Source of the DNA: Sycon ciliatum
Taxonomy: Eukaryota > Porifera > Calcarea > Leucosolenida > Sycettidae
Assembly: GCF_964019385.1 (NCBI RefSeq)
Contig: NC_088654.1
Location: 11,520,471-11,584,470 of the forward strand
Direction: 5' to 3'
Length of the DNA: 64,000 nucleotides
In this document: piece by piece, positions 4,735 through 61,600 of the stretch
Layout: the number at the start of each line of letters is the position of its first letter
Numbering within the stretch: the first letter of the stretch is position 1
Translations under genes and position numbers: made by a program
Notes under the pieces: generated by a model
The model's input: only the letters and a program-made list of their open reading frames with translations
Told to the model about the DNA's origin: nothing
Databases searched by the model: none

Positions 4735-5250
4735 GTTTGCTCCCCACCCCGGAGCTCGCGCTTTTCCGCAGAGCTGACTTGACACTGACTCTGACTCACG
4801 ACTGCCATCCAGAGCACACGAGAAGTCCGTCGAACCTTCGACTCGGAAAACCTGCAAGAAAGCACCAGTCCCTGTTCTCACCGTACAGGAGCGACACTGC
4901 ACTGACTGACACTGCTATCTGGTGTTCACGAGGTGTTTGTCGCGCTGGAAACGGAGCGTATCTGTAAGTTTGTATCCCAGGTGATGATTTGGCCCAAGAG
5001 CACTAGACAACCTACAAAGCACCTCTTCGTGCTCTTCGGACACAATCTTCCTTAGCTAACTCAAGCTCAACTGATGAGGGGTGAATTCCCCGAACAACTG
5101 TGTATTGAGCAGGGAGTGGTGCTTTCCTGCAGGTTTGCAGGTTCGATGGACTTCTCGTGTGCTCTGGATGGCAGTCGTAAGTCAGTCGAGTGCCAAGTAC
5201 TAGTACACGTAAACTCCGCGAGCTCAGGTACTAGGTGTGGGGAGCACTGA
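4735..5250. repeat. Foldback repeat with hammerhead-bearing arm
   Basis: The left arm (about 4735-4890) reads CTGCCATCCAGAGCACACGA and CAAGAAAGCACCAGTCCCTG. The reverse complement of the right arm (about 5100-5250) carries the same blocks. A third copy lies at 55,425-55,620. In the copies where that end survives (5.1 and 55.6 kb) the repeat terminates in a hammerhead-like motif. No protein is encoded. Confidence 0.65.
5065..5110 (+). ncRNA. Hammerhead ribozyme-like motif, decayed (H1)
   Basis: Seen: perfect 6-bp stem I GCTCAA (5065-5070) / TTGAGC (5105-5110), catalytic CTGATGA (5071-5077), stem II GGGG/CCCC (5078-5081/5088-5091) and GAA (5092-5094). The next bases are CAACTGTGT where ACACTGTGT would close stem III, so position 15.1 is C and stem III loses two pairs. 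The related copy at 55.6 kb keeps the normal bases here. Inference: a once-active type I hammerhead, probably inactive now. Confidence 0.6.
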
Positions 5251-5270
5251 AACGCTATTCCTATAAATGC

Positions 5271-5548
5271 ACATTGTACATTGTAATTTTTTTCATCCTT
5301 TCAGTCATGTGACCTTTGAATACATTGTGCATTGTAATTTTTTTCATCCTTTCAGTCATGTGACCTTTGAATACATTGTACATTGTAATTTTTTTCATCC
5401 TTTCAGTCATGTGACCTTTGAATACATTGTACATTGTAATTTTTTTCATCCTTTCAGTCATGTGACCTTTGAATACATTGTACATTGTAATTTTTTTCAT
5501 CCTTTCAGTCATGTGACCTTTGAATACATTGTACATTGTAATTTTTTC
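5271..5548. repeat. 51-bp satellite array, left part
   Basis: A 51-bp unit is repeated between five and six times with almost no divergence. Each unit contains ACATTGTRCATTGTAA, a T run, then CATCCTTTCAGTCATGTGAC. As 51 is a multiple of 3, both strands stay open and produce artificial repeat proteins. The array is interrupted at 5549 by a hAT-like insertion and resumes at 6855. Confidence 0.9.
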
Positions 5549-6854
5549 TAGGGCTCAAACGGTTAGTCCGATTAACCGGTTGCAGACCGGTTACGAAGAA
5601 TTAACGGTTAACCGATAAAGATTACGCAGTAACTTTTCAGTCAATTTTTCAAGTATCACTATCAGGTCGTTGCAAAGTATGCACTTTCGCAGGCTGTCGC
5701 ACGCGTACGCAATTTCTGGGCTGTCAACTCGGTCATATCTGGTCTCTTGGTGTGAGAGTATGTATGAATGAGCATGCAAGAGAATGTACATGTGTGCGTT
5801 GTACTGAAAAGGGTACATTTTTTGAATAAGTATACATGTAGTCAAATATACGGTTAAAAAAGAGTCTTTTCTGTGAGTTTTGTTGCTAGGAGACAACTAA
5901 AATGGTGCTCCACGCGTAGCTGAGGTCCAAAGCTTTCCAACGGTGTAAAAAACAACCATACTTACCATACAAATTTTTGCAGTATCGATCGGCTGAAGTC
6001 TGGTGAAATTGGAAAAGACGACCCTCCGCCATGCGCGCATTTCGAGAATGGGAGTGCATATCTTGAGGCCGTGTCAGAAAAGCTTTCTGAGGACACTGAC
6101 GGCACCAGTCTAGGCTGGATGTCCCTGGAGAATTTCCAGTGTAATGTGGTGAGAAAGAGAGCTCCGTTGAGTCCTCCTAGCTCAAATAAATCGTCCCCGA
6201 ATGAAGAAATCAAATTTACCAACCAGCGAGGAAGCACAGCAACAGCAACTCTTACAAGGACTTGTCAGGTGCGATCAGCTGATTCGCCTGGCCGTGAGAA
6301 TCACGGCATGTGTGACATCGCGCCTGAGTACTCATCTGAGCGAGAGTGAATCTGACGCGAGCGGCGATGAGGTGAACGATCCAAAATTGTGATATTGTGG
6401 AACTGTTGCTGCTGGTGCATCGCCGATGGCTAGGTATTGGAGTTCAAGGACGGAATTAGGAGCATATATTCTTCCCAAAAGACGTAGCGCTTACCTGATT
6501 GTTTATCATAGGACTTCAGCTCCATCATGAACTTGGTATGCACTTCGTGCTGTGATTTTTGTGCTTTTTGTTCGCAATTGTATTTTCTCTCAACTTGAAG
6601 GGCTACCACGGGTCATACCCTTGCCTGGACATAGTCATATTTGTGTTTTCTGGATTCGTCAAGGCATACAGATATTGAAAATATATGGTTTACCCATACC
6701 TACAACTAACAGAACTTGAGTTATGGCTGGTTGTTTGTACGGGTGTTTGCGTGACCACCCCTCACATACATTGAGTAAGACCCACAAAGGGTTAAACCGA
6801 CCGTTAGCTTAGCAGTTAACCGTTGGGGGTAAAACCGTGACCGTTTGAGCCCTA
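5549..6854. mobile_element. hAT-like non-autonomous transposon in the satellite
   Basis: Terminal inverted repeats read TAGGGCTCAAACGGT at the left and its exact complement at the right. The 8 bp before the element (ATTTTTTC, 5541-5548) and after it (ATTTTTTT, 6855-6862) differ at one base, as expected for a hAT 8-bp target duplication. Subterminal regions are rich in GGTTAACCG-like motifs. The roughly 1.3-kb interior has no transposase; the small frames at 5591-5896 (-) and 6071-6349 (+) are unrecognised. Confidence 0.75.
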
Positions 6855-6950
6855 ATTTTTTTCATCCTTTCAGTCATGTGACCTAGAATACATTGTGCAT
6901 TGTAATTTTTTTCATCCTTTCAGTCATGTGACCTTTGAATACATTGTACA
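6855..6950. repeat. 51-bp satellite array, right part
   Basis: The satellite resumes after the insertion with about two further units. The first unit lacks the TTT of ACCTTTGAA. The array ends at 6950. Confidence 0.85.
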
Positions 6951-7208
6951 AGCAATGTAGCCTTGTAGGGTGGACGTGGCTCGGCTTCAACGTTCAGAAT
7001 TTCACGCTATACTGCTGACCTTTCACTGTAGACTGTGTAGTACTACATGTGTGTACTACGAACTAGTCACTGCCACTGTGCTAGTACATGTACAGTTAGT
7101 CCCAGTGGTATGGCGAGAGAAATCCGCCGCAAGGTGGCAGTGTGTGGTTCGCAACCAGGCCTTGGCGGGTAATGCTCGACGAATCGACATACAATGTACA
7201 TGTACATG

Positions 7209-8087: not shown

Positions 8088-8106
8088 TATAGACCCCTTT
8101 CCGGAT
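8088..8106 (+). repeat. Left terminal inverted repeat of the transposon
   Basis: TATAGACCCCTTTCCGGAT is complemented exactly at 13,969-13,987. Beyond the 19 bp the two ends diverge, then match again in the 16-bp block. The exact outer boundary is uncertain by 2 bp because the target is TA-rich. Confidence 0.9.
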
Positions 8107-8236
8107 CGCCGCGAATCTCTATGGTTACCGAGAAATTCAAACTTTGGTGGGCAAGAAGAACCACTCTACTAATTAGTTACTTTGTCTTTTTAGTTGGTTG
8201 GATCTATTTTGTCGTCCTTTCCTTTTAGTTTCAGCC

Positions 8237-10475
8237 ATGGTGCAGACCTGTGCCGTCATAGGATGCACAAATAGGTATACGCGTGGCTGTGGAGGTGGTT
8301 TCCACCGATTTCCAACAAATCCCAAGCGCAGGGGACTCTGGATTGCTGCAATTCGCCGTAAAGAAGCTGATGGATCGCCCTGGACACCAGACACTGACGA
8401 GCGAGTCTGCAAGAAGCATTTTGTTCTTGGCAATCCGAATGCAAAGGAAGCAAAGGATGACGAGTCCCATCCTGACTATGTGCCGTCCTTGAAGCTCGGT
8501 TATGACTCCGCGAACCCTGAAACAGCTACGTCAAAAATCGATCGTTCTGTCCGACGTGAGAAGTTTACTGAGCTGAGGAAAAAGAAATTGGCTGATGCTG
8601 CAAGGCTGAAGCAGAAAGAAGAGGCAAGGAAGGCAAGCCAACGACATGGTGTTTCTCATGACCACTCGTACTTCGCCAAACTTCAACTGTCCTCTCCTAT
8701 TTTCAAGGTAAGAAAAAACTTCTGACTGATTCTGTACGTTGAGTAATTCAAAATTTAGTTGTTTGTACGTTATGAATTTCATACGTTGCAATCAGCTTGT
8801 GCCCCTGATGCATCGATGTTGTACGATGCTGGAAGGTCCCCTTCTTGGAAAGGCCATGCACACTCCATTGGCCAGGCCAGAAAGACGTTATTCTTCAGAT
8901 GCATTTTGAAATTTCTCTTTCTAGATGATGGTGTCTGGAAGAATTAAATTATTTTTTCGAGAATCATAAAGTGTAGGTGTATGTCTACTTGTTTGTTGCT
9001 CAGAACTCAACCGGGATGTCCAGTCTTCTGAATCTTGAAGTGCCAACTATTGCTCCTATCAAGGTGTCTACAGGTAAGGTGTCTGCTGTCTTGGCCTTCA
9101 AGTAGTGTCATATCTGTGATTGGTTTCAACTCTTGTCGCATGTGTACAGTAGTGAGTGAAAATGCTGCGGGTCCCATATTGGTTCAATAATTATTGTACG
9201 TTTCTAAGATGTCCTGACCTTGTGTAATATCGGTAGATTGTTTCTGATCCCTGTTCTTTGAATTGCACCTGGACGTCATGGACGAAACGTACCTAATCTT
9301 CTCCATTGCATCACTCCCATTTGGAGGGTTAGATGTTATGTGCCGGTACTGTGATCTCACTTGTCCCTGGTCAATTGTGACGTGATTTGTGTTATCTTTC
9401 TCTTCCATGTTCTACAGCATGTGGACCTGATGAACCCTACACCTCGGACACTGATCGTTTGGAAGAGGAATGCAAGAAGTTGAGGGCGGAAGTTGAACGG
9501 CTAAAGCGGCGTTGCGGGGAACTAGAGACTGGGCTTTCGAAGGCACAGTTTGGTGTGCACTGGATTGACGAGTCTGATGAGAAGTGTCGCTTCCTCACTG
9601 GTCTGCCGAACCGCTCCGTGTTCCATGCCGTCTTAGGTCATGTGCAGGAGAAGGCCGCAAAGCTCACTGCCTGGCGCGGTGATTCCACCAGTGACCCCAA
9701 GGACAACAAGCCTGGCCCTCGGATGACCAAGGACTTGTCCATTGCCAACCAGTTCTTTGCGACGCTTGTCCGGTTGCGCCATGGTATGTGTGGCGGGTTT
9801 GTGGCAGCCCTGATGCAAATGCCTGACTCCACGTTCAGCAGGATGTACTCCACGTGGATTCTGTTTCTGTCCCGTGAGCTGTCTCTCCTCTTCCCGTTCC
9901 CGTCCAGACAACTTGTGGACAAGTTCATGCCACCGTGCTTTAAGTCCAAGTTTCCGCAGACGAGGATTATCATTGACTGTTTGGAGATCCAGATGGAGCG
10001 CCCAACTTCTCTCCTGAACCAGTCGATCACTTACTCCAGCTACAAGAGCCGGAACACCATGAAGATTCTTGTAGGTGTTTCACCTGCTGGTCTTGTGACT
10101 TTTGTGTCGGATGTTTGGGGTGGCCGAGTCAGTGACAAGGTCATCACAGAGCAGAGCGGTCTGTTGCAGCTTCTGGAGAAGGGTGACAGTGTCATGGCTG
10201 ACAAGGGCTTTGACATCGAGGTGCCTCTTGCTCTCCATGGAGTGAAACTGAACATCCCGCCAAAGCTCGGTGCTGATAGCCAGATGAGCGCCCAGAAGAT
10301 CGAGAAGACCCGCCGCATTGCAGAGCTGCGTATCCATGTCGAACGGGCTATCGGACGTGCACGTTGCTACCGTGTCCTCAACACTGTGTTCCCTGTGAGC
10401 ATGTCGAGTCTGTCGTCTCACATCGTGAAAGTGTGCTTCTTCCTCACAAACTTCGACGCCCCGCTAGTAAATTGA
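8237..10475 (+). CDS. THAP-domain DDE transposase
   Basis: Spliced from exons 8237-8707, 9004-9073 and 9418-10475, giving 1599 nt and 532 residues. Donors AAG|GTAAGA and ACAG|GTAAGG and acceptors TTGCTCAG and TTCTACAG keep the frame. The N-terminus is a THAP zinc finger: C5-x4-C10, then W and VCKKHF giving the C-x2-H pair. A basic, probably coiled, linker follows (KKKLADAARLKQKEEARK). The third exon opens with a second coiled coil (LEEECKKLRAEVERLKRRC), then a helix-turn-helix-like part and a DDE_Tnp_4/Harbinger-like nuclease core. Candidate catalytic acids are D367 (IIDCLEI), D442 (VMADKGFD) and E489 (HVERAIGR). The expected role is binding the element ends and cutting and joining DNA in the nucleus. 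The start is the first ATG of the THAP fold, 130 bp inside the left repeat. No inactivating change is visible. A domesticated host gene is possible but the intact ends argue for a transposon. Confidence 0.9.
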
Positions 10476-11394: not shown

Positions 11395-13860
11395 TCATGA
11401 CTTGTACTTTGAAAGGTACAGCTTGTGAGAGCACAGCTCTGGGATAACAAACTGCTCGTAGAAGGATGTTAACTTCATGAGCATGGTTTGCCAATGAGCG
11501 TCATCGAACATGATACGCTCTACAAGCACGCCAGCACATGTGAACACCACAAAGTCACACCACTTCACATCCATGACCGCCATCTCACCAATCACCTGGT
11601 CATAGTACTTGTGATTCTTGCATAAGTGGGCTGACCCGTCCGCGTGGCATTCCAAGAATGACTTGCCAGGGAATTGCTGGGCGATCCGAGTTGGCGTGAG
11701 GTTAACAATAGATGTGCCCTGGATGGAGAAGGGGCATTTTATTTCCAGGCAGCCACGCTCCACCACGCCGCTCTCAAGCTCCTCCACAACGATTCCATCA
11801 GAACTCGCACCAATGAAGTGGTAGTCACGATGGAGGCTAAGACCACACTCTCTTACGGTGATGTTCTTTCCATCTTCGAGTGCCACACTGAGGTACATGT
11901 CCCTCGCCCTGGGCTCATTCTCCACTCCCCATCGCATGGCAGGTGGCAAAGCGGAAATGGTGGTGTATCCCATGATACCGGCCAGCAGCGAGACTGGCTC
12001 CTGGGCTCGAGAGCGAACGATGTCACCAAATCGTGAGCTAGTTAGGCGCCCATGACGTAGGTCGAACCACCACGAGTTGTCTGTCTGGCCTTTGGTGAAG
12101 TCTTCCACTTCCTTTTGGGATACACCGTACTTGGACAGTGGTCCGGTATATCGACCAAGGGCATCTTCACTCGTTCCACCTGGAAGCCTGTCAGAATGGA
12201 ACAGGACCAATGGCGAAAGGTCCTTGGGTTGGCTAACTGGAGTAGCAGCAAGTCCTGATGACTGGTCTTCGACTTCCCAGAAATGGAAGAACCCACAGTT
12301 CTTGGCTGATGCCTTTCCCGCTGCTAATGCCTCCTGCAAGGTGAGTGCGTCAGCAGATGTGACTTGGCGGTGTGACGGTGCACGGGGATCAAACTCCGCT
12401 CGCAGCTGCTTCCTCTCCACTTCATCATCAGTCATGCCATGGCAAGCTTTCACAAACTCCATATTGGCGAGTGGCTGAGGATCGACATGCTTCTTTGGAG
12501 GCTGATTCCAGCGCATAGGTTGTGACGTTTTAGACAACTCCACGGGTAGCTCCACTAGATTCCTTTTTGCAGCGGATTCAATGAAGAAGAGTAGGGCAGC
12601 AACATGATTGCACGCCTCTCCCAGCCTAACATAAACAACAACCGCACACGCACACCATGCACGGGAGACAACAAATATATGCCAACGTCAGATAGAGCTG
12701 TCAGAACTCATCACATCACAAACTTGTTGAACAAAGAAGTTATTATAACAATCATCTGCAAAATACATGTCACTACAAAGGAACTATCACAGCACAGGTA
12801 AGGAGGAAGAGTTATAATAGGATTTATCAGTGCCGCAGGTCAACTGTCACATTTGGACTGAAGAAAACACACCAACTCGTAGTGCGTTTCTGTGAAAACA
12901 CTTACCCGGCAATACAGCTGCATTGCGCAGCGTAGACTTCACCAGTCTCAGTGTTCAACGACACATACACGGTGAGCGGTGTATCACACGACAAGGAATG
13001 GTGGACGTAAGCACGGAGATAGGAGATTGCCACACCGTTCTCCCCAGATGCAGGATATTGCTTGCTCCACACATTCTTCACAAAGCCATCGGCAAAAAAT
13101 TGGTACGCCTTCAAAGACCTGTTGCCAACAAAATTTCCAAAGACACATTTGGAGAAAAGAGACAATATTAGGGATGTGCAATTCAGGGGTTCCCTAGCTG
13201 AATTCCTTCACTGATTAGACATTGATGGCAACTGATTCGAAAATGCTAGCTGACCTCAGTTACAGTAGGTCTTTCAACAAAACTTGACACACAGTGACAC
13301 TGACTTTGTCTTGAGAGATTACGAATTCAAACTGCCTACTATCACAACGTACCCACACCGCCCATGTTCATTACTCACCTAAATGCCTTCATGCTCTCCA
13401 TATCAAACGTCTTGTCTCGTCCATAGACCAAGTACGTCAATAAATCCATGAAGTGGAACCGCACCACAGCAGCACGAAACTCCTTGCACCAGTCTTGCAC
13501 CTCGTTGAAACGAGGCAACGAAGACAAAGTGCCCCGAACGTCTTGAGTTATATACTGCAGTCCAACGGAAGCACCAGAGGACGACGCATCAGCAGCACCA
13601 GCCAAACCAATCTTGGACATCGACACCAAGCGCTCCACGATGTCAGCCTTCTTTGTTGCTCCAGTCAACCGAACATCCAGAAATTTGGCAATTTCCTTCA
13701 GTTCGGCCACCTTCAGCGTCGCAAGAGAAGTCTGAACCCCAACAAAATCGGCATCGCTGGCTTCGGACCCTTTTGAAAGTTGTTCAGCAAGGACAGCCAG
13801 TGGCTGAGGCAAGGGTGGTGGCTGCTCAGCGGCAGCAGAGTCAGGGATGACAGCAGACAT
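11395..13860 (-). CDS. SAP-SWIM-YqaJ nuclease, transposon accessory protein
   Basis: Spliced from exons 13860-13379, 13118-12906 and 12625-11395, giving 1926 nt and 641 residues. Donors are TTTAG|GTGAGT and GCCGG|GTAAGT, acceptors GGCAACAG and TTATGTTAG, and the frame is kept throughout. Residues about 46-81 form a SAP DNA-binding motif (TLKVAELKEIAKFLDVRL). A SWIM zinc finger spans the second intron: C227-x-C229-x7-C237-x-H239, with the typical CNHVAALLF tail. Residues about 420-620 are a YqaJ / lambda-exonuclease-like fold with candidate metal ligands E468 (RWGVENE), D508 (ASSDGI) and the E-x-K pair (CLEIKCPF). The start is the first ATG, 109 bp inside the right repeat. The likely role is DNA-end processing during transposition, inferred from the fold and the pairing with the transposase. 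The precise function of YqaJ proteins in such elements is not established. Confidence 0.88.
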
Positions 13861-20400: not shown

Positions 20401-23400
20401 AGAAGGGGTTGCGACCTACAAGTGAGTATGACTTCTTACTTATGTGAATGAATTGATACAATTTGGCTCAGACCTGAAAATGGGCTGCGGCTTATAATCA
20501 AGTGCGACTTGCGACTTATTATCGGGGAAATACAGTACCTAGGTTTCCCGGCTGTCCCGAGGCTTCGACAATCTCCTTCAGGATCGCGTCATCGTTGTCC
20601 GTCATCATCGGCAAGAACTTCTCGTGCAGCTCCCGCGCTATCTCGTTGTCATGCCGATCCTCGAGACTGGAGTCTGGCGAATCTGTGGATGGCAACCAAC
20701 ATACAATACACCTGTGAGTGACCAGGGTAAACAAATGTGTGCCTAGTCCATTTTTAGACTCGCGTGGAGAGCCAAGGACTAACTTATAAGAAAAGAGAGA
20801 ACCAAAGAGCTACAAGTTACGCTGTAATATCCACTAACACCACCAGTTACTTTACAATCAGCTCATGCGATAACATTGCACGACACAGACCAACTTTACA
20901 AAGCTGATTGTGAAGTAACTGGTGGTGTAAGTGGATACTATAGTGTAACTTGTAGCTCTTTGGTCCTCTTTTCTTCTTATTCATTAGTTCATTTTTCATT
21001 CTTATTTTTAAAGGTTTTCGCTGGATTTAGGTAGCTTACGGTATCAAAAGGCCAGTACTTCCGAACTAGCCGATGGTAACGCGGATGTGCGAACTTTCCT
21101 TTCCTTTTTTTAACTTCACTTCCGTACTCTCAAAAAAACCCTCGTCAGGGAAAAACAAGGAACAGTCCATATTGTCAACATGAACAAAGGACAAGGAGCA
21201 GCAACAACGACCTGTAGAGTTTATACCGCCAATGTACCACATGCAGCACGGAGCGTGCATGCATGCATACTGCTAGATACATGCACATGCACGTACATGA
21301 CGCACAGCTGCATATGAAGTATGGTCATGATGAAACCGGAAATATTCCGCAGCGTGTCTCTACACACTGAGTACTGTAAAACGCCTAATTTTAGCGTCGG
21401 TGAGATCTTAGCAATTTTAGCGAAAGGAGAAAGGAGTTGAATAGTTTGCAGGCAACCTGCTTTAATACACTCAAGAGAGCACTGCATTTCACACAACAAT
21501 CCATTAGAAGTATCGTTTCAACGTTTCGGTCTTCATGACCATCATCAGAAATCAGGCAGGTTGCCTGAAAACTATTCAACTGCAATGAAGCTGTGTGAAG
21601 CGTCGTTCAAAATTTTGGAGAAAGGAGTGTTTTCGCTAAAGTTCTATGACTTGCCTGGTAGGGAGAAGTCACTGTTCCAAAGCCAGGCGCTTTGCTCACA
21701 CGCTTCATCCGTCAGGGTCCTCAAAGCGCCGATGCCTTCCGAGAGCAGTGACGGATATCGCGTCCACTCGTCGTACAAGGATGCCTCAGAGTCGGTGCGT
21801 GACGGAGCGGCGGCTGCAGTGGCGTTCAGCTTTGCCGCTCGCTGTGCATTCTCGGCGCTGCTCATCGGACTGGCGACAACCACCGCGCTGGTGCTCTTCG
21901 CAGTGTTGGCGTCGAGTGCAGCGTCAGACAGCATCGGAGTTTCCTCTCCGTGGTGAGCGCTAGTGTCACTCTTGTTGGTGGTGTCCTTGCCCGTGCTTGT
22001 TCGGTCTTCTGCGCGTGTGCCGTCTTCACGGCTCTGTCTCTTCTCGCGACACTCCTGGCTGACTAGGCGGGACACCGATTTGGCGTGCCGCTCTAGCCAA
22101 TAGTCTGCAAGCAAATAGACACGAGGACAGAGCGAATAGGAAAGACGGATCAGTATGAGGGGGTTCGCGGCAGCTGAACCACCTCCAAGTCAATGAAAAT
22201 TGTGCACGGCTCAATCAGGTCGCCTTTCTGAGTGACCGACAGTGTGTTCCGAAAAACACCCGAGTCCAAGTCATCTAGCCTCACCATGTAATCGGGATAG
22301 GCATACAAGGGCGCCTATTGGGGCCGCCAATTTTAGATTGCTTCACACTGCTTTTTTCTTACTGGTGCTCATCGGGCCGGTCTACAAAATTTAATAACAT
22401 TGGTGCCAACATTAGCTGGCACGGCACCATTGAATGAAATCCACGGTCAGCAGCCACTTAACATGTTCCTTTCCTGCTTTCCGTGCTCAAGAATGCTAGA
22501 AAGTTACAACGAGCACCTCGCTGAGCAAGAGCTCGATCACTAGTCTAGTAGAGAAATGGAGAGAAAGTTGGAGTTGACCTCGGCTCAAATACACGCATGC
22601 ATTCGAGAAACTTTCAGCAGGCGTACACCTCACCGCCGATTGAAGATCAGTGATGCCAGTTCCAGTTGATGCGCAAGTTCGTTAACAGTGAAGCACGTGC
22701 AACTCTGCAACATCGACAGCCCGCACAAGGAACTGGTGGTAATTGAACGCTTGCCGAACATGCCAAACTTGACGGTTGGCGCCATCCGTCAAGGAAAATT
22801 GAAAAGTTTCAATAGCAACAGCCAGCCAGGCTGTCAACGCATGACCAACCAAATCAATCATAGAACTAATCACTGTTCAGACCCGGCGAGTTGCTACAGC
22901 CTGCCTGCTGGCCGTATGTCTCCTTCAGGGCCCGCGGCAAGCAAGTGCCTTACTGATGCTCTCATACCTCGGTTATCCGGATCCCGAAGTTACGGGCATT
23001 TCGGTCTACTGGGCACCCTTCGGGCGACTTTTGCGGACATATTTCTTCTCTTTTGTCGCTTTTTGTTGAAATAGCGACATCGCATGCCATACCTACGGCC
23101 TTTCCCCATGAAAATGTACATGATCCGGAGTGACGGATATTTCAAAGTTACCCCCCCCCCCCCTGTCCCGGACCGCCCGGATAAACGACGTATGAGTATA
23201 CATGTACAGTGCAAGCCTAGCTAGAGCAAAGTGAAGTGATGTTTTCAAAACTTCGGCCAGTATGATTACTACTCCATACATGCCTCTTGCACGCATTTGC
23301 ACTCATCATTGCTATAATTATTACTCGAATAGACCTGGTATATAAGATCTAACGCGTCAGCGAGAATACATTGCATTTGACACATGAGCACAATGCTTGG

Positions 23401-35400: not shown

Positions 35401-36430
35401 GCAACGCCAAAAGGAACCACCTAGAAGTCAAACGGACAACACTGCAACGGACAACACTGCAGTGCAGATTCACAGGAGCAGTACATGCACAAGCAGCCTG
35501 CAACTGAGTGATCGCGTCAACGTCTTGTAGGTTATCATTGGAGTCCATAGAAGACGTGCCCTGTGTGCTGCATAATCCATGGTCCTTGCATGGAGGAAAG
35601 GATTCAAATGCGAGCTGATTATTACAGAGTTACGAGGGTTAGAATGCGGAGGGGGGGGGGGGGGGTAATCAGAGGAAATTCCATCATGAACATTTTCTTA
35701 CTACGAAGCAGATGCTCAAGGGTTTGGTTAGCCTCCACCTGCCACTCATTCTGTTGGTCGTAACCTGACAAGATGAAGATGTACAGTGTGCATAGTCATT
35801 ATAATAATTTTATTATGATGTACATGTACATGTACGCAAGAGGTACACAAAAGGAAGTACAATAGGGCGGTTTCGTTGTTTCGTTATCTCCTCTGCTTGC
35901 CTTCATATACCTGCGCTTTTTCTGTTGTCTGAGGATTGGTGTTTGCCATGAAACTCTGAGTAACAACGAAACAGTCCTATTAATTTTTACTTCCTTTCGT
36001 GCACCTCTTGCGCACTGCGCTCTGTCCACTACGGGCATTTGAGCACAATTGCAGATCAAGGTGCACTGCCTCTGTGATATACAATCATGTATTGTATTGT
36101 TGTGCAACGATCTGACGGGGGAGGGGGGGGGGTCAGACCGATAAAGCAGTATCTGAGCACGTTCAGTACACCATGGTACACTGGATGAATCTTTGTGAGA
36201 TGTCTGTCACAATGCATGTTTTTTTGTTTTTTTGAGAAACAAGATCTGACGAGTATTTTATTCATAATAATATTATGGTGGTAAACACGCACCTGGCAAT
36301 ATGGCGGTAAATACACAATTTCACAATGCATGTACTTGTGGTTGAACTATGAGTAAATCCAAAGCAGCTATTGGAGGGTTGTCTTTTACTTCTTGTTGTG
36401 TAAGTGATCAACAATGCAGTGTGTGAAAGG
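35401..36430. other. Anonymous DNA with G runs
   Basis: G runs lie at 35,651-35,665 and 36,122-36,132. A block at 36,252-36,310 matches 24,525-24,575. No gene is supported. Confidence 0.4.
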
Positions 36431-40010: not shown

Positions 40011-40105
40011 CACACGAGTGAGAACAATAACAAGTTTATCCACAGGAAGATGGATGCGCAAGAGGCACACAAAGGAAAGAAAGGACTCTTGTTGACAAGA
40101 ATTGC

Positions 40106-40214
40106 AATAAACAGAACCAGCCGAAGCATCATTTCACGAAGGTTTCTCTAGAATTTGTTCATGACATCAAATTAAAATCTTCGTGAAATGACGCTTCAGC
40201 TGGTTCTGTTTGTT
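40106..40214. repeat. Hairpin MITE
   Basis: AAACAGAACCAGCCGAAGC with ATTTCACGAAG at the left is complemented by CTTCGTGAAAT and GCTTCAGCTGGTTCTGTTT at the right. A related single copy is at 16.84-16.94 kb. Confidence 0.75.
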
Positions 40215-40475
40215 TCAATCCTGTAAAACACCTTTTGTCACCTCGTCGCCTTTTCAAATATTTCTTTTGTTCATACTCAGACATTCATGGTGTAACAGCC
40301 AATCATCATGCAGCAGTGAAGGCGCTCTACCTATCACGGCCATTCAGCACACAGGCCCGCCGGAACCGGTACGGTACGGTTAGTCAGGGCCTCACCGCAC
40401 CAACTTGGTGGCCACCACCAATGCATGTGTACCGCTGAGGAGGTCGTACGTACCCAATATATCATACACTAGGCA

Positions 40476-42490: not shown

Positions 42491-42496
42491 ACACCG

Positions 42497-43369
42497 TTAA
42501 AGGGGAAGTTAAGGCAAAAATTAAAATTTCACCAGTTGTAGTCTTCGGGGTGCTGAGTCGAATGGTCGTGGTCCGAGGAAGCTGAGACGCTCCCTTCCTA
42601 CTTGAATCCCAATCGAACTCGCGCACTTCCACCGAAACTGGGTGACTGCGCCCTACGAGATGGGGATTTGTATGCAAAATGTCACTAAAAGCGCCATTTC
42701 GTTCTTATAAAAGCACGGATGACCGCGATTGGCCCATATGTTGTAGTCTTTTGGACGCTGAGTCGACTGGTTTTGGTCCGAAAAGGCTGCGATGCAGCGT
42801 TCCGCCTTTATTCCCAATCGAACATGGTTGAACAAGCGTCACGTGCTCCTGCGTACGCCAGTCACCTGGTCACCGTGCCTGCAGGGTACAACTTTACTTA
42901 CTAGCTTGTTTGACCTTTTTTGGGTGCAGTCCTGTCACTCGAGTTGAACTCGAGTTGAACCTTGGTGTGAAAGTTGTCACCTGCTGGCGTGGTGACCAGG
43001 TGATTTGGGCACCCAGGAGCACGTGACCACTTGTTCAACCATGTTCGATTGGGAATAAAGGAGGCACGCTGCATCGCAGCCTTTTCGGACCAAAACCAGT
43101 CGACTCAGCGTCCAAAAGACTACAACATATGGGCCAATCGCGGTCATCCGTGCTTTTATAAGAACGAAATGGCGCTTTTAGTGACATTTTGCATACAAAT
43201 CCCCATCTCGTAGGGCGCAGTCACCCAGTTTCGGTGGAAGTGCGCGAGTTCGATTGGGATTCAAGTAGGAAGGGAGCATCTCAGCTTCCTCGGACCACGA
43301 CCATTCGACTCAGCACCGCGAAGACTACAACTGGTGAAATTTTAATTTTTGCCTTAACTTCCCCTTTAA
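42497..43369. mobile_element. TTAA-flanked foldback transposon
   Basis: TTAA target copies lie at 42,497-42,500 and 43,366-43,369. The inverted ends AGGGGAAGTTAAGGCAAAAA continue as arms of about 370 bp (outer AATCCCAATCGAACTCGCGC, inner AACATGGTTGAACAAG) around a spacer near 42,880-43,000. TTAA duplication with AGGGGAAGT ends resembles piggyBac-type non-autonomous elements. There is no transposase ORF. It is related to the element at 56.2 kb. Confidence 0.8.
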
Positions 43370-43372
43370 CGC

Positions 43373-43416
43373 GTTGCCTGATGATCGTAGTAATACGTGA
43401 AACTGAGAGTTGTGAC
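43373..43416 (+). ncRNA. Hammerhead ribozyme, type I (H3)
   Basis: Stem I GUUGC (43,373-43,377) pairs with GUGAC (43,412-43,416) through three Watson-Crick and two G-U pairs. The catalytic CUGAUGA is at 43,378-43,384. Stem II CGU/ACG (43,386-43,388/43,395-43,397) closes a 6-nt loop. GAA follows at 43,399-43,401, then stem III ACU-GAG-AGU ending in U (43,410). The predicted cut is after U43,411. All core bases are present. The weak points are a U-U pair at the base of stem II and the very short stem III, which is usual for animal repeat-encoded hammerheads. A TTAA-element end lies 3 bp upstream. Confidence 0.75.
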
Positions 43417-43419
43417 AAA

Positions 43420-44384
43420 GCTTCCAATCTCTCTCGTGGAAACTCACCATACATGTACAATGTAGTTTCATACAGTCTTAGGGTAACCATGGTAACTGTG
43501 ACGGCTCAGTACTCAGTAGTACTGTACAGCACGCTATGACGAGACTCGAGTCGTAGAAGACGAAAAAGGCCCAACCCTGCCCTGCCAGTTACAGTGTACA
43601 TGGCCTTACGCAAGTTACGGGGGCCGCCATGGCAAAATGATCAATCATCAATCAGATCAAGATCAAGATCAATCATGCGCTACACAAAACCTTGCTAAAG
43701 GGTAACAGGGTAGTGTGAGGGGGGTTCCCCAGCCCAGGCCAGAGTGCACATAACAGCGACTTTCACGACTCGATGATTGTTCACTCGAAATATTATTATG
43801 TTTGTGAAAGGAAGCTGGCATGTGGAAGTTTGCTCTGAGGCCAGAGTCTATCAAACTGAGCCACTCCTTTGTGTTTGCCCGTTGCCTCCAAATTTTTATT
43901 TCAAATTTTGGTGTCACAGAGGTGGCTCCAAACCCAAACAGTTTTGGAGTGCACATCAAGTTCACCCTGAGTTCTGAAATTAGGTAATTGCTATCGCTCC
44001 ATGACGGCCAGTATAGAGCAACAATAAGCCTTGTGTGTGCTTCCATTAGTTTTCATTGGTATGCTGTGCATTATTGGCGAGAGGCGAGCCGCTGTTTACC
44101 TGCGACAAGAAGTTGACTTTTCGAAAGACGTTCAACTCAACTCGCAGTGCGAAGCAACACGTCAAAAACCCACCTGCTTGGTTTGGCGCTTCTGGTCATC
44201 GCAGAGCCATGAACTTTTGGCTCGGAGTAAAACACATCGTAGTCTCACTGCGGCATATGTGTTCTAATCAAAATACGAAGAAAGAAAGTGAATATTGAGC
44301 CCGTTCCGGTTTGCAACCCTAAACCGTCTCCTTTACAGTGGCTGTGCTAGGAACGCACAGTGCCCTCAGTTGGGTTGACAGCAA
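43420..44384. other. Anonymous DNA
   Basis: GTGGAAACTCACCATACA at about 43,436 repeats the segment GAGAAACTCACCATACA at 42,478, on the other side of the TTAA element, which suggests the locus was a tandem repeat before the insertion. No supported gene. Confidence 0.35.
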
Positions 44385-44854: not shown

Positions 44855-45029
44855 ATAAATTGCAAATCGCACACAAAAGGCACAATGGTGTTTTACAGAT
44901 TTGTCGCAACTCAGAGTTTCTTGCTCAATGCAATCATCAGGCGACTCTTGTATGTAATAGTGCTCCACATTGTTGTGTCGAGCCCTCTCCGCTGGCAGAA
45001 GGAAGTTTTCCTCCTTATAAATTGCAAAT
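44855..45029. repeat. 162-bp spaced direct repeat bracketing a ribozyme
   Basis: ATAAATTGCAAAT is found at 44,855-44,867 and 45,017-45,029, each preceded by TCCTCC or a variant. The hammerhead H4 is between them. One ribozyme per roughly 160-bp repeat spacing is what a retrozyme-like or satellite monomer would show, but the second unit is not complete. Confidence 0.5.
44903..44945 (-). ncRNA. Hammerhead ribozyme, type I, intact (H4)
   Basis: The best example in the window. Minus-strand order: stem I GUCGC (44,945-44,941), CUGAUGA (44,940-44,934), stem II UUGC-AUUGA-GCAA (44,933-44,921), GAA (44,920-44,918), stem III ACU-CUG-AGU (44,917-44,909), cleavage base U44,908, stem I partner GCGAC (44,907-44,903). 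Stems I and II are fully Watson-Crick and every core base matches the consensus. The weak stem III would favour activity in dimers, as known for animal hammerheads. Confidence 0.85.
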
Positions 45030-50478: not shown

Positions 50479-50528
50479 TGTTTTAACTCTGAGTTTCACG
50501 CACTACATAAAGCGGTCATCAGAAAACA
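50479..50528 (-). ncRNA. Hammerhead ribozyme, type I (H5)
   Basis: On the minus strand: stem I UGUUUU (50,528-50,523) and AAAACA (50,484-50,479), six Watson-Crick pairs. CUGAUGA is at 50,522-50,516. Stem II is CGC/GCG with a C-U mismatch at its base and a 10-nt loop. GAA is at 50,497-50,495. Stem III is ACU-CAG-AGU (50,494-50,486) and the predicted cut follows U50,485. The mismatch next to the core may reduce activity. Confidence 0.72.
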
Positions 50529-54425: not shown

Positions 54426-54429
54426 CGAC

Positions 54430-55420: not shown

Positions 55421-55424
55421 GGAG

Positions 55425-55620
55425 CTCGCGGTTTTCCTGCCGACTTGAATTCTCACTTGACTGACTCACGACTACGGACTAGTCGACTGCCATCCAGAGC
55501 ACACGAGAAGTCCATTGAACCGTCCATTAAACCGTCCACTCGGCACACCTACAACTAGTACAAGAAAGTACCAGTCCCTGCTCAAGACACAGTGTTTCGG
55601 GGAATTCACCTCTCATCAGT
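55425..55620. repeat. Hammerhead-bearing repeat, third copy of the 4.7-5.2 kb family
   Basis: GGAGCTCGCGGTTTTCCTGC, CTGCCATCCAGAGCACACGA and AGTACCAGTCCCTGCTCAAG follow in the same order as the left arm at 4.74 kb. The end is the hammerhead H6. Confidence 0.75.
55581..55620 (-). ncRNA. Hammerhead-like motif with intact core (H6)
   Basis: On the minus strand: CUGAUGA (55,619-55,613), stem II GAGG...CCCC with loop UGAAUU and one A-C mismatch, GAA (55,598-55,596), stem III ACA-CUG-UGU (55,595-55,587), C55,586 at the cleavage position, then UUGAG. The 5' strand of stem I (AGGUGA) no longer pairs, whereas the 5.1-kb copy keeps GCUCAA. Core intact, stem I lost. Confidence 0.62.
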
Positions 55621-55739: not shown

Positions 55740-55950
55740 CTATTGAATCTCATAATCCAAGGCACAAATAATTGTAAATGAATGATATAATTTATACTCA
55801 ATCTGCGGACGGAACTGTTTCGTCCTTTGTGGACTCATCGGCGCAGCACAGACAAAATGAGGCCGAACCTGGTGGCAATGAAAAATAAATTTTCCAGAAC
55901 CAAGCTCGAAGGGGACCTTGCCAGAGTGCTCAAACTGCACTGACAAGTAG
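55740..55950 (-). repeat. Internally deleted copy of the 60.3-61.6 kb ribozyme repeat
   Basis: Read on the minus strand it begins ACTTGTCAGT...GTTTGAGCACTCTG, as at 60,353, then jumps to TTTTTCATTGC and CAGGTTCGGCCTCA, as at 61,480-61,505, and ends past a hammerhead. It is about 0.2 kb against about 1.25 kb for the longer copy. Confidence 0.65.
55803..55846 (-). ncRNA. Hammerhead ribozyme, one core substitution (H7)
   Basis: On the minus strand: stem I CUGCG (55,846-55,842) and CGCAG (55,807-55,803), stem II GUCC-ACAAA-GGAC, GAA (55,821-55,819), stem III ACAG/CCGU with one mismatch, and a GUC cleavage triplet ending at C55,808. The catalytic segment reads CCGAUGA instead of CUGAUGA. U4 is part of the conserved core, so this copy is probably impaired. 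The 61.5-kb relative has the normal base. Confidence 0.7.
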
Positions 55951-56168: not shown

Positions 56169-57613
56169 TTAAAGGGGAAGTCCGGTGAAAAATTTAAATT
56201 TCACAGTCCGTAGAGTTCGGGTCGCTGAGTCGAATGGTCTTTGTCCGAGGAGGCTGCGGCTTATGGTTCGTCAGATACGCCCAATCGAACATGTGCGAAT
56301 TTGAGCGCGCATCACCCAGATCCAGGTGATGACGTCACAGCGTGCAGCCAGGTAGCCACACCATCTAGTTGTGTACAAAAATGGCCATATTCGGAGCGCG
56401 TTCGATTGGGGAACCGTTTGTCGCAGCTTCTTCGGACCAAGACCATTCGATTCAGTGTTACAAACACTACGTACCCTGTGATTTTCAGCTCGGTAACCCT
56501 GGAGGTTATACCGTATTATAGCCGTTTCCGAGTTGGACTTTTCCGTCAGCCTCTACCGTCTACGCGCTCTGCGCTGCGTGCACTGGTGCATGCAGTGCGT
56601 GCAGTGTGTTATCTAGCTGTAGTGCGGTCAACAAACTCATCACAGACGGAACTACTCCCGCACTGCCGTGCTGGGGTAGTATATACAAGACTCGAGTCAC
56701 AACTGACACAAGACTCAGAAAACTAGTCAACACACGGACTTGTCATGTACTACACTCGTATCAGTCGTATTGTTCAGTCATGTAGTCAGAGAACGTGCGT
56801 TTCTCCTTGCCGGTGCCGGTGGTTGTGCTTTGAGAAAGAAAATTTTAGTTTTCCGCACCCGCCTCATTATTTTATGTTACAGCGATGAGTGCACAACCGT
56901 GACAAGTGACAAAACAGCGAACAGCTCCCGGACCTAGAACTTTCAGATTCCATAGCGTTGCGAGCGAAGAGTCGTGCCCGTGGTTCAAAGAGCCTGCACT
57001 GTTCTCCAATTGAGTAGTCCGAAATATTCCAAGTTCGCACCAAAACATCACCATGTGGCAGGCTACTGGAGTCTAAGCGAATCTAATCGGTATGGAACAA
57101 CATTTAGAGCACTCGCATCACTCTTCTCCATTTTGGCGACCCTGCTCTCCAGCGATCTGATCAGCCTCGTCTGCAATAGCTGCTGCTTCTTCATCAGTCG
57201 GAAACTCAGTAGCGCTCACTCTTGACCGGCCCGCGTGGCCATTTCTTCAGCTGCCGAGGTTCTCAGCCCCAGACCGAACTCATGAAGGTCAGCCATGGCT
57301 GCATCCTCACTCTCACAAGGAGTTACAGGTCTTCGGGGTCGCTTGCACCAAACTATCAGTCGCCAAATCATTTGAAATAGCACTGACACTATTGCTTTCA
57401 CGCACTCCTTTTGACCTAGCTGCACGCTATGACGTTGCAGAGGGTGTGGCGCGGCCGCATGACGTCATGGCGCAGCCCCCGAAACTCAGTTTTTCAAACG
57501 GAAATATCTCGAGAACGCTTTGTCGGAGACACGTGGGACCAACACCATTCGACTCAGCGCCCGAAACTCTACCGACCCTGAAATTTAAATTTTTCACCGG
57601 ACTTCCCCTTTAA
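56169..57613. mobile_element. TTAA-flanked non-autonomous transposon, 1.4 kb
   Basis: TTAA copies lie at 56,169-56,172 and 57,610-57,613. The ends AGGGGAAGTCCGGTGAAAAA and complement match over about 35 bp. The outer 9 bp equal those of the 42.5-kb element. A nested hairpin at about 56,200-56,485 has arms around GTCGCTGAGTCGAATGGTCT. Open frames inside (56,241-56,726) show no transposase features. Confidence 0.8.
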
Positions 57614-57641
57614 AGTTTCACGCATCGGAGCGATCATCAGA
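57614..57641 (-). ncRNA. Hammerhead-like motif interrupted by a TTAA element (H8)
   Basis: On the minus strand: CUGAUGA (57,640-57,634), stem II CGC/GCG with a U-U pair at its base, GAA (57,619-57,617) and ACU, the first strand of stem III. The sequence then enters the transposon. Rejoining conceptually across the insertion at its TTAA target restores an ACU-UUA-AGU stem III. Stem I would be poor. It is of the same class as H3 and H5. Confidence 0.5.
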
Positions 57642-57664
57642 CAGCATCATTCACAGTATTGGGT

Positions 57665-58345: not shown

Positions 58346-58349
58346 CACT

Positions 58350-59820
58350 CAAACATGTACAAAGTCTACAACACAGTGCCCCACATTCCCTCCACTCTGG
58401 GCCTCTGGTCCGCCTAGCCTAGCTTATGCCATGGTCTGTTCTATAGTTCTGACAAAACATGACTTGTACTTGTAGTAAGCATTGCCTCTCTTCGTCCGGG
58501 TCGACCGGAATAATTGCTGACACAGGCATTCAGCCGTGGTCACTTACATGTAGTAAGGATCATTGAATGGGAGATTCAAGCTGCAACCCAAATCCAAAGT
58601 GTTAAACAATGTAGATCCTGATTCTTACCTGCACCTGCCAGTGCCACCAAATCAGCCCAGCTTTTGTACCAGGAATGGCAGTATAGTGCATTAAATTTGT
58701 ATTGCATTTCCATTCATCGTGCCTTTTTTTCCTGTCATAGGACACTTCCTTCCAGTAATGGCGGCATTCACTAGTGTTCTGCTCTGGACCAGATGGTACG
58801 CCAAGTCACGACCTTGACACGTTGCCACAGCATACCACCAGCGAAGGGACACTGCAATATTTTGCAAATCTTCACGCCTCACGGGCGCATTATGCTTCCC
58901 CTAGGGAATAAGCTCTCAACATATTAATCTTGATACTTGTGTCCCGGTTTTGCTCAGTCGGCAGAGCACGAGGGTACAGTAATGGATAATGGTTATCATA
59001 CAGAATTGCACACTTATTCACAGAGAGAGAGAAAGAGTTCTCAGGTAATACACTGTAGTCTAGCATGAACCTAATCCGTAGGAAACTGGTTTGCGGAGAG
59101 CTGGTCTTAATCGGCAAGAAACTAATCTGTAGGAAACTAAGAATACAGCAGCTTTTATAGCGAAGGTAGAGAACTAAGGTTGGTAAGACAAGGATTACGA
59201 AATCATCCTTCTACAAGTTCTAGAATAGTGGAGAGGGTAAACCTAGATCATCATTGCTATATATGTAGATGAAGTGAGCATTGCGTAACATTAACATAAT
59301 GACTAAGCGAGGTATTCTAGAAGGTGAGATATCTATTATTATGCAATTTAGTCAGCAACATTACTCATCAGGCATATGACGTGGAAGGTATGGATGGAAC
59401 AGTCCGGAATCAACGACGTGATTGACTAACTAAAAGGAAGTGGTAGACGTACGAGTTCTAGAAGTGCTGACAACAAGGTTACAAGCATGGGAGATCTAAT
59501 TATAGCTTATGACGAGGCTTACGTTTACGTGCATGTACTACAGTACTAGTAGTCGCAATCAAGTCATGTGCATGTACATGTACATGTCATAATGTTTGCA
59601 TTTCTACCCTAACACTTGTTTTTTTCTGTTTTGTTTGTCTTGCTATTGTACAGTAAACCCGGACAGTGCATTGTGGACTGAGCTGCGCCGACCCATGCCT
59701 CATCATCAGTTGGTATCCAGAATCTCTACGGTAATGATCACTCAAAGCAGTGCAGTGTGTGAAACGTGACATAAATACATGTACTTGGAAGTAACTAGAG
59801 AATTCGTCGGAGGGAAACAT
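58350..59820. other. Anonymous DNA
   Basis: No supported gene. A tRNA-like head (GCTCAGTCGGCAGAGCACGA) at about 58,955 has no B-box. Confidence 0.4.
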
Positions 59821-59821
59821 A

Positions 59822-60257
59822 TCAGCACACGAAGAGACGAAGCTGGTTGTAAATATGATAAGGCCTTTCGTACCATTACTCTTCAAAATCAGTACATGGT
59901 GATAATGTGACGAAGCACAACGATGTCAATTTATACAGCATATTGGCGGAAAAATTGTGATGAAACGAACACAGGCTGAATGATAGTGTGAGTTGCGCCA
60001 AAGAGGACACGCACTATAACAGGAAGGTGGGAAGTCAAAATAGCACTAGCTTCCTAACAAACTCCTTCTGTCTACACAGCTCAGGCTGTAGCTTGGCAAT
60101 GTAAGCAGCCTCTAGCACATCTAGGTGACAATTTTTCCGCCAATATGCTGAATAAATTGACATCGTTGTGCTTCGTCACATTATCACCATGTACTGATTT
60201 TGAAGAGTAATGGTACGAAATCAGATTTACAACTAGCTTCGTCTCCTCGTGTGCTGG
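59822..60257. repeat. Foldback element
   Basis: Left arm 59,822-59,960 and right arm 60,127-60,257 are complementary over about 130 bp (TTCAAAATCAGTACATGGTG, CATATTGGCGGAAAAATTGT). The centre is about 165 bp. There is no coding content. Confidence 0.85.
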
Positions 60258-60339
60258 TACTTCGCTCCTGCTCTTGTAGTAGTTGAGCACTCTCATGTGG
60301 GGGTAGTACAGTGCCTTTGCTGTTTGCGTCACGCAGACT

Positions 60340-61600
60340 TGGCAGAGCTCACTGACTTGTCAGTTTGAGCACTCTGTCTCTGACAAGGTTCGGGCCTGGT
60401 TGGTGGCATATCACCCAAACATTTCATATGCCATTCACCGTAACTTTGGTGTCTCTCAATGGATTTGAGTGAACTTTGCACCACACACTCCTGCCACTAT
60501 GCTGGCCCTCTGGACATGATTATAAAAGTTCTTGCGCCTCACTGACAGGCTTTACAGGCCGGAAAAACTCAAAATTCCGGCATAGTGCCACGGTGTGCGA
60601 GCCACCCGGGAGCCCAAAAAATACATTTACAATTGTTTACACATTTTCTTGCCCATTCTGTCCGTGCGCGGGATCCAAACCTAACAAAAGTCCAGAAGCA
60701 GCCATGAGTGGTGGGATAGGGCCCCTTAATTAACGTGGCCCTGGAATCTGTCACAACGGCAGAAGTGGGTATTCTCTCACAGACTCCCACAGACCAAAGT
60801 CAATTTTTGAACTTTTTTAGGTTTAGGGTGTGCTACGAGGTCGTACCTTTGATACAACATCCATAACTAGTGCTGGGACCTCCACAGCAAGCCATTTCCA
60901 CAGCGCTGCACACCAAATCCAGGATACCTTCAATAATCGGCAAAGACTACCACTCACGTTCCACTACTGCCTAGTGCTGAATCCTACCTGACTTCTTGAC
61001 ACGACTCAAACTTGCCGAAGTCACTAAATCAACGTCAACTACAATAATCAAGCCACATACATGTACATGTATCTGCAACGTCACGAGGGTGCTGGCAAAA
61101 GTCCTGCTGCACGGCGGCGGGCGAAGCCCGCCTCCGTGCAGCCCAATACATGGCTAAAACGTAATTTTTTGGACTTGGAGCAAAATTCTGCACACTTTCG
61201 CGTGTTTCCATGATACGCAAGTTGCGCACGGTCTGCTCAGACTCAAATACAGTGCTGCCAAAAAATGACAGCGTGCAACAAAAAATCTTTCCTTGCAAGG
61301 GCACATTTTCGGCCATAACTCTTGAACGGCTGGTCAGATCGAGACAAGATTTTCAGAGATTTTGCAGCTATTCATGCTCTTTCAACCGATGTAGCACTCG
61401 ACATGAATTTACAAATTCGATTTTTAGGGAATTTTTGGGTGACATGCCATGTTAAATCTGGCTTTGGAAAATTTTATTTTTCATTGCTATCAGGTTCGGC
61501 CTCAGTTTCTCTGTGCTGCGCTGATGAGTCCACAAAGGGTCGACGAAACAGTTCTGTTCGCAGATTGTGTATGTCATGTATATGTACATGCATCAGCCAC
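60340..61600 (+). mobile_element. Candidate ribozyme-bearing non-autonomous element
   Basis: The 55.7-kb repeat shares both ends of this interval but lacks the middle, so I infer an element from about ACTTGTCAGTTTGAGCACTC (60,353) to just past the hammerhead at 61,563. The interior holds small frames only and no reverse transcriptase. Exact ends are unknown. Confidence 0.45.
61516..61563 (+). ncRNA. Hammerhead ribozyme, type I (H9)
   Basis: Stem I CUGCG (61,516-61,520) and CGCAG (61,559-61,563). CUGAUGA is at 61,521-61,527. Stem II is GUC/GAC, apparently derived from GUCC/GGAC by insertion of three bases in the loop side. GAA is at 61,545-61,547. Stem III is ACAG-UU-CUGU (61,548-61,557) and the predicted cut follows U61,558. 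The core is complete. It shares a stem I and the ACAAAGG loop with H7. Confidence 0.75.

What the first reader, a model, noticed from the sequence alone, without database searches (positions are those of the whole stretch)
5065..61563. Nine hammerhead ribozyme motifs from several repeat families in 64 kb
Seen: CUGAUGA and GAA cores separated by a stem II hairpin at 5.07, 21.53, 43.39, 44.92, 50.50, 55.60, 55.82, 57.63 and 61.54 kb. Stem I sequences differ completely between families yet still pair, for example GUCGC/GCGAC, UGUUUU/AAAACA and CUGCG/CGCAG, which is compensatory evidence for real RNA structure. Known: type I hammerheads with tiny stem III occur in animal retrozymes, satellites and Penelope-like elements. 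Inference: this genome hosts several independent ribozyme-carrying repeats, some possibly active.
Basis: partly seen in the sequence, partly recalled or inferred. Interest (0 to 1): 0.92.

Follow-up and report, generated by a model that had tools for sequence, protein, structure and literature searches.

The report
Penelope and retrozyme hammerheads sharing hairpins
The hammerhead ribozymes in this animal DNA are real and mostly belong to two kinds of jumping element, and both kinds carry the same pair of small RNA hairpins just beyond the point where their copies end, which suggests that one kind uses the other's copying enzyme to spread.

Summary
Ten hammerhead-like (HHR) motifs are known to me in the window, one of them unlisted. 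Four listed motifs and the new one (35,923) meet a strict type I descriptor; 100 resampled windows gave none. The other five are decayed, interrupted or minimal.

Genome searches (538 Mb) say what they are. Five (35.9, 43.4, 44.9, 50.5, 57.6 kb) go with a superfamily of 2,335 exact core matches (0 in the reversed control) that I read as Penelope-like elements (PLEs). Two (55.8, 61.5 kb) are relics of tandem 226-bp retrozymes. Two smaller families (5.07/55.6 kb; 21.5 kb) stay undecided.

New: PLEs and this retrozyme share two UU-bulged hairpins (GCUC-stem-UU-GAGCACUCU, starts 62-68 nt apart) 3' of the HHR; the hairpin pattern has 8,032 genome matches, 11 reversed. Aligned copies end 0-11 nt 5' of hairpin 1 (18 of 33 PLE, 9 of 9 retrozyme copies) or 51-62 nt past its start, where hairpin 2 begins (9 of 33). 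I infer these are reverse-transcription start sites and that PLE enzyme copies retrozymes in trans, until now argued from shared traits only. No RNA or protein was tested.

The parts
35923..35968 (+).
   Evidence: aligns with subfamily L045/L038/L028
36019..36049 (+). hairpin 1 (UUU bulge) 3' of C5
42479..42493 (+). left 15-bp target-site duplication GAAACTCACCATACA of the C1 insert
43439..43453 (+). right 15-bp target-site duplication of the C1 insert
42495..43371 (.). palindromic TTAA-flanked repeat inside the C1 element, 5' of its hammerhead
43373..43416 (+). C1: superfamily C hammerhead
   Evidence: insert ends 8 nt before the hairpin-1 position
44855..44867 (+). left 13-bp target-site duplication ATAAATTGCAAAT of the C2 insert
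44903..44945 (-). C2: superfamily C hammerhead
44960..44984 (+). hairpin 1 variant (UC bulge, no ACUCU) in the opposite arm of the C2 insert
   Evidence: hairpin read by eye
45017..45029 (+). right 13-bp target-site duplication of the C2 insert
50479..50528 (-). C3: superfamily C hammerhead, same subfamily as the tandem element L067
50433..50452 (-). decayed hairpin 1 of C3; the insert ends 1 nt before the hairpin-2 position
57614..57646 (-). C4: 5' part of a superfamily C hammerhead, cut in stem III
   Evidence: assigned by eye
56169..57613 (.). TTAA-flanked repeat (78-bp terminal inverted repeats) splitting C4
56094..56122 (-). hairpin 1 of the C4 element, beyond the inserted repeat
   Evidence: 27.8 bits, E 0.0019; z -2.99
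60257..60403 (+). retrozyme D unit, first part, starting just 5' of hairpin 1
60264..60293 (+). hairpin 1 of the retrozyme relic
   Evidence: (E 0.029)
60347..60375 (+). hairpin 2 of the retrozyme relic (83 nt from hairpin 1 here, 68 in intact units)
   Evidence: (E 0.15)
60421..61433 (.). 1-kb repeat that splits the retrozyme unit
   Evidence: 87.7% match to sequence beside L030
61516..61563 (+). D1: retrozyme type I hammerhead (extra bases in stem II)
55803..55846 (-). D2: decayed retrozyme hammerhead (core CCGATGA)
5065..5110 (+). B1: hammerhead of family B beside an inverted arm
55580..55619 (-). B2: decayed copy of family B
21514..21548 (-). A1: minimal hammerhead-like motif (2-bp stem III)

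Best explanation
The motifs are type I hammerheads of mobile elements copied through RNA. Superfamily C is the hammerhead of Penelope-like elements, lying between tandem ORF copies; D is a non-autonomous retrozyme made of tandem units. Both have the same layout: hammerhead, 12 to 48 nt, hairpin 1, and a second hairpin that starts 62-68 nt after the first. Each hairpin has an outer GCUC/GAGC stem, a UU bulge, an inner stem that varies but pairs, and a 3' ACUCU. Inferred mechanism: the Penelope protein binds the hairpins, cuts target DNA and starts cDNA just 5' of hairpin 1 or hairpin 2. Synthesis running back through the hammerhead gives 5'-truncated inserts with 10-16 bp duplications; starts on both strands at different hairpins give head-to-head copies with a tail on one arm. 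Retrozymes carry the same module, so the Penelope enzyme copies them in trans from circular or multimeric RNA. Shown: motifs, pairing, common order, insert ends, duplications. Inferred: protein binding, priming, circular template, trans copying, ribozyme activity.
For: Superfamily C: 2,335 genome matches, 0 reversed. L067: ORF (646 codons in the stretch), hammerhead about 140 nt after its stop, two hairpins, next ORF copy. 94 of 3,710 candidate ORF relatives scored, several open to 733-749 codons, some tandem or head-to-head. Hairpin: 8,032 vs 11 reversed; hammerhead then hairpin 547 vs 0; two TTGAGCACTCT 36-66 nt apart 407 vs 0. In the 35 distinct inserts among the first 100 places listed, 111 of 140 inner positions pair, shuffled mean 66, maximum 95 of 10,000. 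26 distinct model-aligned rows: 96.5% of cells pair, covariation 0.397 vs 0.114, 0 of 500 shuffles. A model of 5 PLE hairpins finds retrozyme hairpin 1 at E 0.011 and hairpin 2 at 0.15 in 343 kb. Hairpins of L067 and L004 fold as drawn. Ends: 18 of 33 PLE copies 1-10 nt 5' of hairpin 1, 9 of 33 at 51-62 nt past its start, 6 elsewhere; 9 of 9 retrozyme copies 0-11 nt 5' of hairpin 1. Duplications of 10 nt or more in 15 of 24 inserts vs 0 of 480 control positions. Two start sites, tail, cutting of both strands and head-to-head copies are in print for Penelope elements (PMC11167929, PMC3846280).
Against: No Pfam or NCBIfam model recognises the ORF and no solved structure matches by sequence; the Penelope reading rests on motifs I recall and on architecture. 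Only 2 of the 5 window C motifs match the exact pattern; C1 and C5 were assigned by alignment, C4 by eye. Only 16 of 52 C-type hammerheads in the loci (some loci overlap) have the hairpin within 170 nt, the rest being shorter inserts, variants or cut by the stretch. Hairpin 2 was read in one PLE subfamily (L067, L073); elsewhere its place is inferred. In the second retrozyme family (L072) TTGAGCACTCT occurs twice, but hairpin 1 has an interrupted inner stem and hairpin 2 lacks the outer stem. The covariation alignment was fitted to the model, and shuffles ignore relatedness. 6 of 33 PLE ends lie elsewhere; L055 and L056 may be one duplication; one reference (L053, with an insertion) was replaced after it gave shifted ends (then 103). 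At least five of the 15 duplications (L004, L005, L047, L052, L058) lie in or beside simple repeats. 18 of 19 C hammerheads have a U-U mismatch beside the core. Common descent without present trans copying would explain much.
Confidence: 0.7

Rival explanations
1. Retrozymes arose from Penelope elements that lost the ORF and merely inherited the hairpins; they are now moved by another enzyme, for instance a LINE.
For: Same order of hammerhead and hairpins in both; descent explains it without present use; the second retrozyme family has weaker hairpins.
Against: In family D the inner stems differ from those of the Penelope elements yet pair, and 9 of 9 aligned retrozyme copies end at hairpin 1.
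Confidence: 0.22
2. The hammerhead-like motifs are chance or satellite sequence without RNA function.
For: No Rfam match at gathering score in the window; ordinary folding energies.
Against: 0 in 100 resamplings, 2,335 vs 0 genome-wide, paired changes in stems I and II.
Confidence: 0.03
3. Families A and B are something else, for example DNA transposons with a captured hammerhead; B1 lies in an element with inverted arms of about 100 bp whose outer ends read TGCTCCCC by eye.
For: Arms at -294..-194 and +36..+127 of the B1 core; no UU-bulged hairpin by the descriptor in L068-L071; no Penelope ORF match in them.
Against: In L043 the B copy is a head-to-head palindrome with hammerheads in both arms, as in Penelope copies. 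I did not test for a transposase or for duplications.
Confidence: 0.3

Closest known systems
Penelope-like elements with hammerheads in pseudo-LTRs (PMC11167929, parts 1-2 of 4 read; PMC3846280, passages read; the first hammerhead report only as a reference entry)
   Same: Tandem and head-to-head copies, hammerhead between ORF copies, short target-site duplications (8-10 bp in the passages read, 10-16 here), optional tail on one inverted arm, two start sites.
   Different: Stem III is 3 bp with a 3-nt loop; the two end positions are about 60 nt apart, not 30-40; each lies just 5' of a UU-bulged hairpin; the ORF is not recognised by Pfam.
Metazoan non-LTR retrozymes (PMC7229834, part 2 of 6 and passages read)
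   Same: Tandem repeats of about 226 and 237 bp with canonical type I hammerheads; duplications longer than 4 bp.
   Different: Family D carries two hairpins of the same plan as the resident Penelope elements; a 626-bp array (about 2.8 units) is bracketed by one 13-bp repeat.
SINE/LINE pairs with a shared 3' tail (recalled)
   Same: A non-autonomous element shares the start signal of an autonomous one.
   Different: Here the shared signal is a pair of hairpins, and the inserts end 5' of them.

Membership tests
Type I hammerhead ribozyme | Core CUGANGA...GAA with stems I, II, III and cleavage site UH | tested here: met
   5 of 10 window motifs; the other 5 are incomplete
Type I hammerhead ribozyme | Scores above the Rfam RF00163 cut-off | tested here: not met
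   0 in the window; 4 genome copies of family D exceed it
Type I hammerhead ribozyme | Self-cleavage | not testable with these tools
   no wet assay
Penelope-like element (superfamily C) | ORF with telomerase-like RT and GIY-YIG endonuclease | tested here: inconclusive
   FDIVDFYPSI, YRDD, CNCR..CPL..C, YTGLT..TFK.R read as Penelope motifs from memory; no Pfam, NCBIfam or PDB match
Penelope-like element (superfamily C) | Tandem or head-to-head copies with pseudo-LTRs and hammerhead | tested here: met
   L067 tandem; L028-L033 head-to-head
Penelope-like element (superfamily C) | Optional tail on one of the inverted arms | tested here: met
   7 of 7 palindromes that I classified: L028, L029, L030, L032, L033 by alignment, L031 and L059 by eye; L050, L054, L073 and a second palindrome in L029 were not classified
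Metazoan retrozyme (family D) | Tandem repeats of 150-450 bp with a type I hammerhead | tested here: met
   L002, L003, L004 arrays of about 226 bp; second family of 237 bp, L072
Metazoan retrozyme (family D) | No LTR, primer site or polypurine tract | not tested
   not searched for
Metazoan retrozyme (family D) | Circular RNA | not testable with these tools
   no RNA data

The most novel reading that the evidence does not exclude
The pair of UU-bulged hairpins is the reverse-transcription start signal of Penelope-like elements, one hairpin per start site, and retrozymes are ORF-less Penelope elements that keep this signal and are copied in trans from circular RNA, so that arrays arise in one insertion.
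Probability: 0.5. Interest if true: 0.85.

Novelty: new variant of a known kind. Interest (0 to 1): 0.7.

Why it matters
How animal retrozymes move is open: the 2020 paper names Penelope elements as strong candidates from shared hammerheads, tandem copies and co-existence (PMC7229834, passages). A shared RNA structure with paired changes, sitting just 3' of where the inserts of both kinds end, gives that idea a testable molecular basis. It would also give the two start sites and the tail of Penelope elements a structural explanation, and make the hammerhead one part of a larger module.

Tried and rejected
Rejected: chance. Rejected: that C elements are DNA transposons with inverted terminal repeats, which the palindromes first suggested, because single inserts share a 3' end, differ at the 5' end and have duplications. 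Rejected as a rule: that the inner ends of inverted arms lie at the cleavage site (B1 and C5); in L028-L033 the arms run on through the hammerhead.

Led nowhere: Pfam, NCBIfam and PDB for the ORF; relatives in prokaryote and viral contigs (12 and 8 stretches matched a pattern, none encoded a relative); a first alignment that misplaced the hairpin stems (not used). Three papers were not held and one paper search returned nothing. The count of retrozyme D hammerheads by pattern did not complete.

Not in print: the listings of searches (open-licence PubMed Central only) showed no title or abstract on a hairpin shared by retrozymes and Penelope elements; only four papers were opened, each in part (PMC7229834, PMC7761336, PMC11167929, PMC3846280).

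Full report
What was given. The window lies in a 538 Mb genome held without a name; its genes and repeats look animal. I did not identify the species.

Check of the observation. CUGAUGA cores with a hairpin and GAA are at eight of nine places; at 55.8 kb the core reads CCGATGA. A type I descriptor gives five motifs in the window (35.9, 43.4, 44.9, 50.5, 61.5 kb; the first unlisted) and none in 100 first-order resamplings. Rfam's model gives nothing at its cut-off and one weak match, and the seven HHRs folded have ordinary energies and not the full three-stem fold as their best structure. In 19 arbitrary stretches (190 kb, of which 5,000 N) a slightly looser descriptor gave 3 hits, one a clear canonical HHR (L015) and two copies of a doubtful one (L020), against 0.1 per resampled set and 0 in reversed sequence; a C-type motif in L027 was missed by it. 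The window is thus richer than these stretches, as expected of one picked for this.

Family D is a retrozyme. The genome's best Rfam type I matches (21 at E<=0.001 of 74 candidates scored, 4 over cut-off; 0 of 14 control genomes) include eight that I hold, all relatives of the motifs at 55.8 and 61.5 kb. L002, L003 and L004 are tandem arrays of about 226 bp. In the window one unit runs from 60,257, is split by a 1-kb repeat and ends after the HHR at 61,563. A second tandem family of 237 bp with another perfect HHR is in L072.

Superfamily C is read as Penelope-like. CTGANGA-(8..18)-GAAACTCNGAGTT has 2,335 exact genome matches and 0 in the reversed control. Two of the five window motifs match it exactly; C1 and C5 join by alignment, C4 by eye. 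Stems I and II differ between subfamilies but pair (two of five measures do not exceed shuffles). L067 shows ORF, about 140 nt, HHR, two hairpins, next ORF copy. The ORF has motifs that I recall as those of Penelope RT and endonuclease; no library model confirms it. Related ORFs open to 733-749 codons occur, six copies have one identical score, and some stand in tandem or head-to-head pairs. Six fetched head-to-head copies with outward-pointing HHRs run from 131 bp to 3.5 kb. C1 and C2 in the window have 15-bp and 13-bp duplications. C4 was cut by a TTAA-flanked repeat, and its hairpin lies beyond it.

The hairpin module. 3' of C-family HHRs I noticed GCTC-stem-loop-stem-TT-GAGCACTCT. A descriptor over the window and L001-L071 found it in PLE loci, in random stretches (L019 twice, L021), and twice per unit in D retrozymes; reversed sequence gave 0. 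Of 52 C-type HHRs in the loci (overlaps included) 16 have it within 170 nt; the others that I looked at mostly end before it. Genome-wide: 8,032 against 11; HHR then hairpin 547 against 0; two TTGAGCACTCT 36-66 nt apart 407 against 0, most of the listed ones from one tandem retrozyme family. The 35 distinct inserts among the first 100 listed places pair in 111 of 140 inner positions, shuffled mean 66, maximum 95 of 10,000. On 26 distinct rows, 96.5% of cells pair, covariation 0.397 against 0.114 (0 of 500), but this alignment was fitted to the model. A model from five PLE hairpins finds D hairpins only at the margin (E 0.011 and 0.15), so the stronger evidence is the shared outer stem, bulge, ACUCU and spacing. 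L067 and L004 hairpins fold as drawn; in L072 hairpin 1 is interrupted and hairpin 2 lacks the outer stem. Hairpin 1 starts 51 nt (D), 54 nt (L072) and 68-87 nt (six PLE references) after the HHR core start; the next starts 62 nt (L067), 68 nt (D) and 70 nt (L072) later, 83 nt in the window relic.

Where inserts end. For six PLE subfamilies I aligned 33 copies to a longer one: 18 end 1-10 nt before hairpin 1; 9 end 51-62 nt after its start, which in L067 is where hairpin 2 begins; 6 end elsewhere (L063, L053, L054, L060, L039, window C5). The L053 reference was replaced by L050 because it carries an insertion and had given shifted ends (then 103). Left out, most for want of a reference with a hairpin: L031, L034, L035, L041, L042, window C2 and C4. 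Nine retrozyme copies at the 3' edge of an insert (L001, L003-L008, window D1 and D2; inner array units and L002 left out) all end 0-11 nt before hairpin 1. Repeats of at least 10 nt bracket 15 of 24 inserts (17 PLE, 7 retrozyme), 0 of 480 control positions; at least five lie in or beside simple repeats. In seven of seven palindromes classified one arm ends at hairpin 1 and the other carries it (five by alignment, two by eye).

Mechanism. Work on a lizard Penelope element showed cutting and extension of both strands and two internal start sites that explain the genomic tail. Here one hairpin lies directly 3' of each end position. I infer that the hairpins are landing sites of the enzyme, that head-to-head copies come from starts on both strands at different sites, and that retrozymes are copied by the same enzyme. 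A window unit that begins and ends at hairpin 1 and runs through its HHR, and a 626-bp array inside one 13-bp repeat (L004; the repeat is ATAC-rich), point to a circular or multimeric template. None of this was tested biochemically.

Families A and B. B: 8 exact matches, HHR with the same 3-bp stem III plan, palindromic copy in L043. A: 43 exact matches, minimal HHR.

Noticed in passing
G000:C11 29.53-29.99 Mb of 30.05 Mb: 10 of the 43 exact matches of the family A motif lie in the last half megabase of one large contig, perhaps subtelomeric.
   Followed up: no
window 5,065-5,110 and L068-L071: In family B the hammerhead stem I is GCTCAA/TTGAGC in B1, the same letters as the outer stem and bulge of the shared hairpin (GCTC...TTGAGC); relation unexplained.
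   Followed up: no
alignment A7: 18 of 19 superfamily C hammerheads have a U-U mismatch at the stem II pair next to the core, where G-C is usual (recalled).
   Followed up: partly
L020 3,633 and 7,270: Two copies of a repeat with an 8-bp stem I and core CTGAAGA that fits the loose hammerhead descriptor.
   Followed up: no
L015 8,978 (-): A further canonical hammerhead in a random stretch, without the strict hairpin in L015.
   Followed up: no
window 40,095-40,224: Palindrome that scores weakly with several unrelated microRNA families, probably only as a long foldback.
   Followed up: no
window 8,177-10,475 and 11,395-12,687: THAP domain ORF followed by a DDE_Tnp_4 transposase ORF, and a YqaJ-type recombinase ORF.
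   Followed up: no
window 17,431-18,030 (-): ETS-domain ORF, E 1.5e-22.
   Followed up: no
window 5,271-5,547: 5.4 copies of a 51-bp tandem unit, 99% alike, with a related stretch at 6,853-6,950.
   Followed up: no
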